Source of the DNA: Fibrobacteria bacterium AD312
GTDB taxonomy: Bacteria; Fibrobacterota; Fibrobacteria; Fibrobacterales; Fibrobacteraceae
Direction: 5' to 3'
Assembly (NCBI GenBank): GCA_001462345.1
Contig: LIUM01000013.1
Location: 1-64,000, forward strand
Length of the DNA stretch: 64,000 bases
Shown here: positions 29,218 through 31,557 of the stretch, one piece after another
How positions within the stretch are numbered: position 1 is the first letter of the stretch
How the letters are laid out: each line of letters begins with the position of its first letter
Notes under the pieces: model-generated
The model's input: the letters and a program-made list of their open reading frames with translations, nothing else
Told to the model about the DNA's origin: nothing
Database searches by the model: none
Made by a program: the position numbers and the translations under genes

Positions 29218-29736
29218 CTAAAAAAAATAGCACATTGGGCAGGATACGGGAAAATAGAAATAAAAACCTAAACGTTGATCTTTTTCCTTTGTCCAACTGA
29301 ATTCCGCACCAAATAACAAAAACCAAGCACGAATGCTGAAGCCATAATCAAAATGATCAGAATTAAATCCCAAGTCTGGACTAACAGACAAACCAAGGCC
29401 TACATAGCTAACCGATAACATTGGCGACATATAAATACCATGATTGTCGTCATAATCATAATAGAGTCTTGCTCCGTACCCCAAATAAAATGTTCTGTTG
29501 ATAGGAGTATTTCCGCTATTTTCTTCACTCCACCCCGGATCAACACCCATATACCAGCGATTGAATTCCACACCTAAAGCAAGATGATCCCCATAAATGA
29601 CAAAAGGCGATATTCCAAAATCAGGGCTATACGTTTTATCTTCTGCAAAAGCAAAAACACGTGCAGATATTAATACAGCTAAAATTATTTTTGCGTTTAG
29701 TATTTTAATAGAAGCCTCGCAATCAATTGTATTCAT
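29218..29736 (-). CDS. Putative outer-membrane beta-barrel protein
   Basis: 172 residues: a hydrophobic N-terminal segment ending ARVFAFA (about residue 31) as likely signal peptide, then alternating aromatic/hydrophobic strands (FYLGYGARLYYDYDD, GIYMSPMLSVSYVGLGLSVSPDLGF, GFYFYFPV) and a C-terminal phenylalanine, as in small outer-membrane barrels. No family recognised. The start is uncertain because no Shine-Dalgarno sequence is evident; TATATTTA (one base off the TAnnTTTG box) lies 13 bp upstream of the ATG. Confidence 0.6.
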   Translation of the reverse strand: MNTIDCEASIKILNAKIILAVLISARVFAFAEDKTYSPDFGISPFVIYGDHLALGVEFNRWYMGVDPGWSEENSGNTPINRTFYLGYGARLYYDYDDNHGIYMSPMLSVSYVGLGLSVSPDLGFNSDHFDYGFSIRAWFLLFGAEFSWTKEKDQRLGFYFYFPVSCPMCYFF

Positions 29737-29983
29737 TATTTGTTTATACTAAATATACCTTTTTTGTTTTTAGACTGTTTCCGCCAATGGGCTATTGATT
29801 TCAGGAGTCTTTCCGACCTGAAAGCACTAAATGTTTCTGAACTGTCTCGACGTCTGGGGATTCATGCAATCGATCGAGAACTCGCAAACTTCAATATCTC
29901 TTCTCCCCATATCAACATCCCGAGCTCTACATAAAAAAGCTTTAATTTTCAAAACCAGCATTTTAAAGGCTTTTCATCGTGTG
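29737..29983. other. Intergenic region upstream of the repeat array
   Basis: Contains two potential hairpins: TCAG/CTGA with inner GTC/GAC at about 29800-29822, and AAAAGCTTTAA against TTTAAAGGCTTTT at about 29935-29975. A 64-codon open frame (29740-29934) has no ribosome-binding site or recognisable product. No gene is called. Confidence 0.4.
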
Positions 29984-30409
29984 TGCACTTCTTTTGAAAC
30001 ACTGTTGCAATTGTCTGTGGTGAGTTCTGCAATTGTTTGTTATGAACTATGCAATTGTTGCTTCTCAAAAAACGTTGATTTTAATGAATTTTAAGTGTAT
30101 TTTGCACTTCTTTTGAATCGCTTTTGCAATTGTTTATGGTGAGTTTTGCAATTGTTGCTTTTCTTAGCTGCAATTCCTGGCTTTAAAAAGGGGCTCCATG
30201 CTTTGCAATGCTTAAAATACTCCTATGACCCACTTTTTTATGTGATTTTGTCTTTGAAAAAGCAATAATAATTTGGATGTTTTGCAATTGTTAGTTTGAC
30301 ACCTTGCAATTGTTGTTTTGTAAAAATGTTGATTTTGGTAAAAATTACGCGTATTTTGCAATTCTTTTTAAAGACTTTGCAATTGTTGTTTTGTTTCGCT
30401 GCAATTCTT
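29984..30409 (+). repeat. 22-bp-periodic array of TGCAATTGTT decamers upstream of fic
   Basis: Fourteen copies of TGCAATTGTT or close variants start at 29984, 30006, 30028, 30050, 30103, 30125, 30147, 30169, 30204, 30283, 30305, 30357, 30378 and 30400. Steps of 22 bp occur nine times and 21 once; the three larger jumps are about 52-53, 35 and 79 bp. G-type units (TGCAATTGTT) are internal; C-type units (TGCACTTCTT, TGCAATTCTT, TGCAATTCCT) mark several block ends. The last unit stops 8 bp before the ATG of the Fic gene. Two helical turns between copies would put all units of a block on one DNA face, which suggests a cooperative protein-binding site. Confidence 0.85.
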
Positions 30410-30417
30410 TATATATT

Positions 30418-31557
30418 ATGAGTATGGACGATTTGCCTGAAAAAATAGACCTACCTTATATCCGATTTGAAAGTCAAACGACGGATTATATCTTGGCTCT
30501 TGAGGAACTCCGTGGAAAAACTTTGCGGGGCGATACTCCTCCAGTTTGGTTCTTTCAACTGAAGAACGCTTTTATGGTTATGGAAAGTTTCCTTTCGTCC
30601 AGAATAGAAGGAAATCATACCACTATCGCGGAATATGCTGTTAAAGTGACTATGCGAGAATCAGACAATAAGTCGGAAGAGGAAGATATTTTGGAAATCG
30701 AGAATATCGAAGCTGGAATTTCTTTCATCGAAGAAGCATATAAAGATAACCATGACTTTCCTATAGACGAAGCGTTCGTCTTAAAATTGCATAGTTTGGT
30801 TGTCCAGGATTTGACTCACGAAGGTGATAAAACTGACGGTTATAGAAATGTTCATGTCCAAATTCAAAATTCAAAACATGAACCGCCGGGCCCTGAATCG
30901 GTGCAAGGGAATATGAATTTCCTTTTTGAGTTTATAAATCGGGAAACTAGTAGCAAATACGATCTTGTGAAAATTGCGGTAGCTCATCACCGTTTTGTGT
31001 GGATACATCCTTTTGTAAATGGCAATGGTAGAACTGCAAGGTTGCTTACTTACGCGATGCTTCTTAAGACCTTTGCGTTTAACAGTTCACGTATCATTAA
31101 TCCAACGGCTATTTTCTGCTCTGACCGTCAAAAATATTATGAAATGCTTTCTGTGGCGGATTCACTTGAGAACGATTCCGTGTGCAAGTGGTGTGATTAT
31201 ATGCTTGACGGATTATTGCAGGAATTAAAAAAAGTAGACAACCTGACTAATGCCGAATACGTAAGGAACAAAGTGTTGCTTCCCATGATAGATCTAGGCC
31301 TATACAATAAGCAGATAACGGAAGAAGCTTATAATGTTCTTAAGGTGGCAATCCAGAAACCGGAAATACAAGCTTCTGATGTAGCACCTCTTTTCAATAA
31401 CAAATATGAAACATCAAGGAAAATCAGGTCTTTCATCGAAGCCAAGTATTTGATGCCTGTGACGGAAGGTTCGAGAAAGTATTGTATTAATTTGAGAAGT
31501 CCTCTCTTTGGAACTCTTTTCCAGATTTTAGGAAAAGAAGGGTTCTTTAAGGAATAA
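30418..31557 (+). CDS. Fic-family protein adenylyltransferase with inhibitory helix
   Basis: 379 residues from ATG 30418 (ATG 30424 also possible); no Shine-Dalgarno sequence. The Fic core motif HPFVNGNGRTAR spans 197-208, with catalytic His197. The N-terminal Fic_N part has the inhibitory pattern SSRIEG (S60...E64-G65) of class II Fic proteins, so it should be autoinhibited and need no separate antitoxin. The C-terminal part (about 300-379) looks like a winged helix (SRKIRSFIEAKYLMPVTEGSRKYCI). Fic enzymes transfer AMP from ATP to target hydroxyls; the target here is unknown. The array at 29984-30409 directly abuts its start. Confidence 0.9.
   Translation: MSMDDLPEKIDLPYIRFESQTTDYILALEELRGKTLRGDTPPVWFFQLKNAFMVMESFLSSRIEGNHTTIAEYAVKVTMRESDNKSEEEDILEIENIEAGISFIEEAYKDNHDFPIDEAFVLKLHSLVVQDLTHEGDKTDGYRNVHVQIQNSKHEPPGPESVQGNMNFLFEFINRETSSKYDLVKIAVAHHRFVWIHPFVNGNGRTARLLTYAMLLKTFAFNSSRIINPTAIFCSDRQKYYEMLSVADSLENDSVCKWCDYMLDGLLQELKKVDNLTNAEYVRNKVLLPMIDLGLYNKQITEEAYNVLKVAIQKPEIQASDVAPLFNNKYETSRKIRSFIEAKYLMPVTEGSRKYCINLRSPLFGTLFQILGKEGFFKE

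What the first reader, a model, noticed from the sequence alone, without database searches (positions are those of the whole stretch)
29984..30409. 22-bp-periodic TGCAATTGTT array ending at the Fic start codon
Seen directly: fourteen copies of TGCAATTGTT or variants, ten of the thirteen steps being 21-22 bp, in blocks, all in one orientation, the last ending 8 bp before the Fic ATG. The 22-bp step is about two helical turns, so all copies of a block face one side of the DNA. Inference: a cooperative binding platform for a regulator, possibly the Fic protein's own winged-helix domain, or a phase-variable operator whose length tunes expression. It is not a CRISPR (short units, similar 12-bp spacers), and no known operator family is recognised.
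Basis: partly seen in the sequence, partly recalled or inferred. Interest (0 to 1): 0.82.

Follow-up and report, generated by a model that had tools for sequence, protein, structure and literature searches.

The report
Self-repressing Fic gene's repeated operator
In front of a bacterial enzyme-toxin gene (Fic) stands a row of short DNA words spaced every two turns of the helix; related genes in very different bacteria carry the same kind of row, so it is most likely the docking strip by which the Fic protein's own DNA-binding tail turns its gene down.

Summary
In detail: 14 copies of TGCAATTGTT (two or fewer mismatches), all in one orientation, 29984-30409, 9 of 13 steps 21-22 bp, ending 8 bp before the Fic ATG (30418). 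The array occurs once in this genome. The Fic protein is a homologue of CccR (PDB 7xux), a Fic enzyme whose C-terminal helix-turn-helix domain binds and represses its own promoter. Direct repeats at 21-23 bp stand upstream of 12 of 17 CccR-clade fic genes from Fibrobacterota, Proteobacteria and metagenomic contigs, against 1 of 30 fic genes of other clades from the same bacterial family (p about 1e-6). No neighbour gene is conserved. Three related proteins that lost the Fic active site keep the DNA-binding domain and the TTGCAAT array in register, so the array travels with DNA binding, not catalysis. Units overlap promoter-like -35/-10 sequences. Best explanation: an iterated, polar direct-repeat operator for autorepression by the Fic protein's own domain. 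CccR's published operator is instead one inverted repeat, so this is a new operator layout for a known kind of regulator. Binding and repression are untested here. Phase variation is not supported.

The parts
29984..30059 (+). Array block A: units at 29984 (TGCACTTCTT), 30006, 30028 and 30050, steps 22, 22, 22
   Evidence: block A/B is a 76% repeat over 87 bp
30075..30103 (+). Promoter-like TTGATT-N17-TATTTT inside the 53-bp gap; its last T is the first base of unit 30103
   Evidence: read; duplicated with 30329-30357 as a 57-nt repeat at 77%. Weak consensus, not listed by the promoter scan; inferred
30103..30178 (+). Array block B: units at 30103 (TGCACTTCTT), 30125, 30147 and 30169 (TGCAATTCCT), steps 22, 22, 22
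30204..30213 (+). Isolated diverged unit TGCAATGCTT
30283..30314 (+). Array block C: units 30283 and 30305, step 22
   Evidence: in register with units upstream of L021 and L044
30329..30357 (+). Promoter-like TTGATT-N17-TATTTT, proposed fic promoter; the -10 box abuts unit 30357
   Evidence: same arrangement TTGATT-N17-TATATT followed by GCAATTATT upstream of L020. Inferred, weak consensus
30357..30409 (+). Array block D: units 30357, 30378 and 30400, steps 21 and 22; ends 8 bp before the ATG
   Evidence: the columns conserved with dead Fic relatives L020, L021 and L044
30418..31557 (+). fic gene, 379 aa, CccR-type class II Fic protein
   Evidence: Pfam Fic; 7xux E 1.4e-76; fold match 7xux TM 0.86
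30595..30612 (+). Codons 60-65, inhibitory motif SSRIEG
   Evidence: alignment with homologues; CccR has SARIEG
31006..31041 (+). Codons 197-208, Fic motif HPFVNGNGRTAR (N where the canonical motif has D/E, as in CccR HPFGNGNGRTVR)
31321..31488 (+). Codons 302-357, winged helix-turn-helix; third helix = codons 329-341 (31402-31440)
   Evidence: predicted structure, pLDDT above 90 here

Best explanation
The array is the autoregulatory operator of the fic gene that follows it. Each TGCAATTGTT unit is a half-site for one winged-helix domain of the Fic protein (homologue of CccR). Units repeat head to tail every 21-23 bp, about two helical turns, so bound molecules line up on one face of the DNA. 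The 52-53 bp gaps (about five turns) keep that phase and hold the promoter. Units overlap the -10 region and the stretch up to the start codon, so occupancy blocks transcription and the Fic enzyme keeps its own level low. Shown: the array, the predicted wHTH, the conserved layout across homologues, its rarity in other Fic clades, and its retention next to dead Fic relatives. Inferred: that Fic binds these units, that binding is cooperative, and that it represses.
For: CccR, the closest solved relative, binds its own promoter through its HTH domain and represses it (PMC9755527). Direct repeats at lag 21-23 bp upstream of 12 of 17 clade members: 110 word pairs against shuffle mean 1.8 and maximum 11. 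Only 1 of 30 other-clade Fic genes of the same bacterial family shows the lag (Fisher p 1.3e-6). Array in register upstream of three catalytically dead relatives that keep the wHTH. No conserved neighbour gene that could encode another regulator. Units abut or overlap promoter-like boxes in the window, L020, L021 and L044. TGYAR-type units face the gene 41 times and away 7 times in homologues. Array unique in the genome.
Against: No binding or expression data. Five of 17 homologues show no such repeats under the strict test. CccR's footprinted operator was described as an inverted repeat with a 26-bp spacer, and a two-fold dimer does not obviously suit head-to-tail sites. The promoter boxes are weak matches and promoter-like sites are no commoner here than in shuffles. 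Homologues are related, so the counts are not fully independent.
Confidence: 0.8

Rival explanations
1. The array is an operator for a different, host-encoded transcription factor that controls fic.
For: Binding by Fic is not shown; AT-rich direct repeats suit many regulators.
Against: The layout is conserved across phyla with fic as the only shared gene while the unit drifts by lineage; the array occurs once in the genome, unlike sites of a global regulator; other Fic genes of the same family lack it.
Confidence: 0.09
2. A phase-variable array whose length tunes fic expression.
For: Blocks were duplicated (87-bp repeat at 76%, 57-bp repeat at 77%).
Against: Copies are diverged, linkers differ and no long perfect tandem run exists for slippage. 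Register is conserved with relatives in another genus. No strains to compare.
Confidence: 0.04
3. An RNA-level element: repeats in the fic mRNA leader bind the protein or control translation.
For: The last units lie between the proposed promoter and the ATG, so two of them would be transcribed.
Against: Most units lie upstream of the proposed promoter; the 21-23 bp helical step and a winged-helix domain fit double-stranded DNA; no inverted repeats were found in the stretch.
Confidence: 0.04
4. Iteron-like origin or mobile-element control site unrelated to fic transcription.
For: Iterons are also about 22-bp direct repeats bound by winged-helix Rep proteins (own knowledge). Some homologues lie on plasmids or viral contigs, and one plasmid has a 21-bp tandem array of another unit downstream of fic.
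Against: The window lies on an 82-kb contig among ordinary-looking genes; the array sits directly before fic in every case and is kept in two syntenic loci L020 and L021.
Confidence: 0.03

Closest known systems
CccR of Yersinia pseudotuberculosis (PDB 7xux; PMC9755527)
   Same: Homologous over the whole chain, same inhibitory and Fic motifs, same wHTH; binds and represses its own promoter; box AGATAATCAT resembles the TGTAGATAAT units of proteobacterial homologues.
   Different: Published operator is two boxes read as an inverted repeat with a 26-bp spacer; here up to 14 boxes in direct orientation at 21-23 bp. Secretion and FtsZ modification were not examined here.
CbFic2 of Coxiella burnetii (PDB 8cil; PMC10628234)
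   Same: Class II Fic enzyme with C-terminal wHTH that binds DNA; 20-bp DNA promotes dimerisation and changes its activity.
   Different: Distant (E 2e-4 by sequence); no specific operator was reported; DNA of random sequence was used.
Direct-repeat regulators such as BldC (PMC5859096) and PhoP (PMC4832192)
   Same: Head-to-tail cooperative binding of helix-turn-helix or winged-helix domains to direct repeats.
   Different: Unrelated proteins; PhoP sites are 7-bp motifs with a 4-bp spacer, so about one helical turn apart.
Iterons of plasmid Rep proteins
   Same: Direct repeats about two helical turns apart, bound by winged-helix proteins that often repress their own gene (own knowledge).
   Different: No replication initiator or origin context was recognised here.

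Membership tests
CccR-type autorepressing Fic protein | Full-length homology and fold | tested here: met
   7xux E 1.4e-76 over residues 16-377; TM 0.86
CccR-type autorepressing Fic protein | Class II inhibitory motif (S/T)xxxE(G/N) | tested here: met
   SSRIEG at residues 60-65
[quoted passage not shown]
   HPFVNGNGRTAR: N at the D/E position, the same departure as in CccR
CccR-type autorepressing Fic protein | C-terminal winged helix-turn-helix | tested here: met
   predicted helices 302-313, 319-325, 329-341 and strands 345-347, 355-357
CccR-type autorepressing Fic protein | Operator of two inverted 10-bp boxes with a 26-bp spacer | tested here: not met
   no inverted repeats in 29730-30420; direct repeats at 21-22 bp instead
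CccR-type autorepressing Fic protein | Binds and represses its own promoter | not testable with these tools
   needs gel shift, footprint and reporter
CccR-type autorepressing Fic protein | Type VI secretion and FtsZ AMPylation | not tested
   not examined
Iteron replication origin | Adjacent replication initiator gene | tested here: inconclusive
   none recognised among ORFs at 24-37 kb, but only four proteins were scanned against families
CRISPR array | Identical repeats of about 25-40 bp with unique spacers of similar length | tested here: not met
   10-bp diverged units at 21-22 bp steps with irregular gaps

The most novel reading that the evidence does not exclude
The operator array is not only a repression site but a DNA scaffold on which the Fic enzyme assembles head to tail, and assembly sets its enzymatic state (AMP-adding versus AMP-removing or silent). 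A short DNA array would then hold a toxic enzyme inactive and release it when the array is cleared. The DNA-induced switch of CbFic2 makes this conceivable; nothing here tests it.
Probability: 0.15. Interest if true: 0.8.

Novelty: new variant of a known kind. Interest (0 to 1): 0.62.

Why it matters
In the literature searched, repression of its own gene by a Fic enzyme was found only for CccR, with one site read as an inverted repeat. This comparison indicates that self-regulation through iterated direct repeats two helical turns apart is a common, long-conserved property of that Fic clade in several phyla. It also finds a set of catalytically dead Fic-derived proteins that appear to keep only the DNA-binding role. 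It gives half-sites, spacing and a recognition helix for direct tests, and it raises the question whether CccR's two footprinted boxes, which also share GATAATC in direct orientation, were read in the right sense.

Tried and rejected
Chance in AT-rich DNA was rejected by shuffles and by control tiles. Inverted-repeat geometry as in CccR was rejected for the window and not favoured in homologues. A genome-wide regulon was sought with pair patterns in the own genome and 60 relatives and gave only this locus; the one match in a relative (L004) looks like coding sequence. Two exact decamers at this spacing in 2.9 million viral contigs gave 16 loci, none with fic and, by eye, apparently inside coding sequence, so a bare pair is not specific. 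A generality test on other Fic clades was negative (1 of 30), so the layout is not a property of Fic genes at large. A conserved neighbouring regulator was not found. Phages gave only distant Fic hits. The promoter scan did not single out the proposed promoter. Recognition-helix class (SRxIR with TGCAA units, TYQI or THxI with TGTAG units) agrees with unit class, but this follows phylogeny and is not independent evidence. Literature searches found no report of direct-repeat operators for Fic genes. Wider searches returned few extra homologues.

Full report
OBSERVATION. The stretch 29984-30409 holds fourteen + strand copies of TGCAATTGTT with at most two mismatches, and none of that quality on the other strand. 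Nine of the thirteen steps are 21-22 bp; the others are 53, 35, 79 and 52. The last copy ends 8 bp before the ATG at 30418. Shuffles give essentially none of this. The exact pair pattern occurs only here in the 2.83 Mb genome. Blocks A and B are 76% repeats over 87 bp, and the two stretches holding TTGATT-N17-TATTTT are 77% repeats over 57 bp, so the array seems to have grown by block duplication and has since diverged.

PROTEIN. The gene encodes a 379-aa Fic protein (Pfam Fic). Its best solved relative is 7xux (E 1.4e-76, residues 16-377), which is CccR of Yersinia pseudotuberculosis (PMC9755527). The predicted structure (mean pLDDT 85.7, C-terminal part above 90) matches 7xux at TM 0.86 and shows a winged helix-turn-helix at residues 302-357 with its third helix at 329-341. 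The inhibitory motif SSRIEG and Fic motif HPFVNGNGRTAR are of the CccR form. According to the CccR paper, its HTH part binds its own promoter at AGATAATCAT-N26-ATGATAATCT, deletion of cccR raises promoter activity 3.3-fold, and the DNA-binding helices of the dimer are about 70 A apart. By my own arithmetic, 70 A is close to 21 bp of B-DNA.

HOMOLOGUES. CccR-clade relatives were collected from genomes of the window's own bacterial family, which I take from memory to be Fibrobacteraceae, an Allopusillimonas genome, three further genomes of its class, plasmids of Pasteurella and Photobacterium and metagenomic viral contigs. In the 250 bp upstream of 17 of them, ten-base words repeated at 9/10 or better pile up at lags 21, 22 and 23 (9, 27 and 74 word pairs), with a smaller pile at 44-46. 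Every other lag between 12 and 43 gives at most four. Shuffles give a total of 1.8 on average and at most 11, against 110 observed. Control tiles elsewhere in the same loci reach 3 or more in 10 of 563, and five of those ten lie on one plasmid locus with unrelated repeats, against 10 of 18 upstream regions. Inverted repeats show no preferred spacing. Thirty Fic genes of other clades from the same bacterial family show the lag in one case; Fisher p is 1.3e-6.

UNITS. The unit drifts between lineages but stays related: TTGCAATTGTT (window), AAGTCAATTGTT and GCAATTGTT (L016, L018), TTTGCAATT (L020, L021), ATGCAAATA (L031, L037), TGTAGATAATTGTT (L027), TGTAGATAAT (L034), ATGTAGATAT (L029) and TGTAGTTTT (L028). 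CccR's footprinted box AGATAATCAT fits the TGTAGATAAT group. TGYAR-type units face the gene 41 times and away 7 times in the homologues. Longer gaps of 64, 65 and 66 bp in L029, L031 and L037 are close to three steps of 22.

DEAD RELATIVES. L020, L021 and L044, from another genus of the family, encode proteins of 283-292 aa that lost the inhibitory helix and the Fic motif (SPFVTENDAVAV in L020 in place of HPFVNGNGRTAR) but keep the wHTH. An alignment of their upstream DNA with window 30270-30430 shows TTGCAAT units as the conserved columns in the same register, with steps of 22, about 52, 21-22 and 22 (the second unit is weak in L020). This is the strongest argument that the array serves the DNA-binding domain: catalysis is gone, the operator is not.

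PROMOTERS. In the window the box TATTTT, 17 bp after TTGATT, shares its last T with unit TGCAATTCTT. L020 has TTGATT-N17-TATATT followed directly by GCAATTATT. In L021 and L044 a unit lies inside the 17-bp spacer of TTGACT-N17-TATATT. These boxes are weak matches by themselves, but the repeated coincidence with units fits a repressor. No neighbour gene is conserved across the loci apart from close pairs, so the Fic protein is the only common candidate regulator.

MECHANISM. The best reading is autorepression: Fic molecules occupy units head to tail on one face of the DNA and close the promoter and start region. Shown are the sequence layout, its conservation, its clade specificity and the predicted wHTH. 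Binding, cooperativity and repression are inferred. How a CccR-like two-fold dimer would use head-to-tail sites is open. The palindromic core CAATTG of the window's unit could let a dimer read neighbouring units in either sense, but units such as TGCAAAT are not palindromic, so head-to-tail monomers or rearranged dimers seem likelier. CbFic2, another wHTH Fic, changes its dimer state and activity on 20-bp DNA (PMC10628234), which makes a link between operator occupancy and enzyme state conceivable; that is the novel reading, untested.

LIMITS. Hosts of the viral contigs are unknown. Five of 17 homologues fail the strict test and may use other operators. Homologues are related to each other, so the counts are not fully independent (L016 with L018, and L020 with L021). 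Start codons of homologues were assigned by alignment and first ATG. No second strain of this species was available to test variation in copy number.

Noticed in passing
L020:1234-2082, L021:1222-2073, L044:1495-2370: Fic-derived proteins without the Fic motif or inhibitory helix but with the wHTH and an upstream TTGCAAT array; L020 and L021 are syntenic. They look like Fic enzymes turned into plain transcription factors.
   Followed up: partly
L036:2640-2898: A distant Fic relative (32% identity) on a 187-kb viral contig also has 22-bp-step repeats, but with another unit (AACTTGCGC/GCGCAAGTT), one pair in each orientation.
   Followed up: partly
L023:3357-3453: 21-bp tandem array TGGTCCTATTTTTAGTGATTT (4.6 copies) downstream of fic on a Pasteurella multocida plasmid; unrelated unit, perhaps iterons.
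   Followed up: no
window 29773-29935 (+): Open stretch reading LDCFRQWAIDFRSLSDLKALNVSELSRRLGIHAIDRELANFNIS without a start codon, upstream of the array; may be a gene remnant.
   Followed up: no
L019:1522-2301 (genome G022): CccR-clade fic copy that lacks about the first 120 residues, with promoter-like and GCAATTGT sequence just before the shortened frame.
   Followed up: no
CccR promoter as printed in PMC9755527: The two footprinted boxes AGATAATCAT and ATGATAATCT share GATAATC in direct orientation, so the published inverted-repeat reading is not the only one.
   Followed up: no
whole genome G000: Six Fic-domain matches in the genome and up to ten in relatives; by the protein search only the window's gene is of the CccR clade.
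   Followed up: partly
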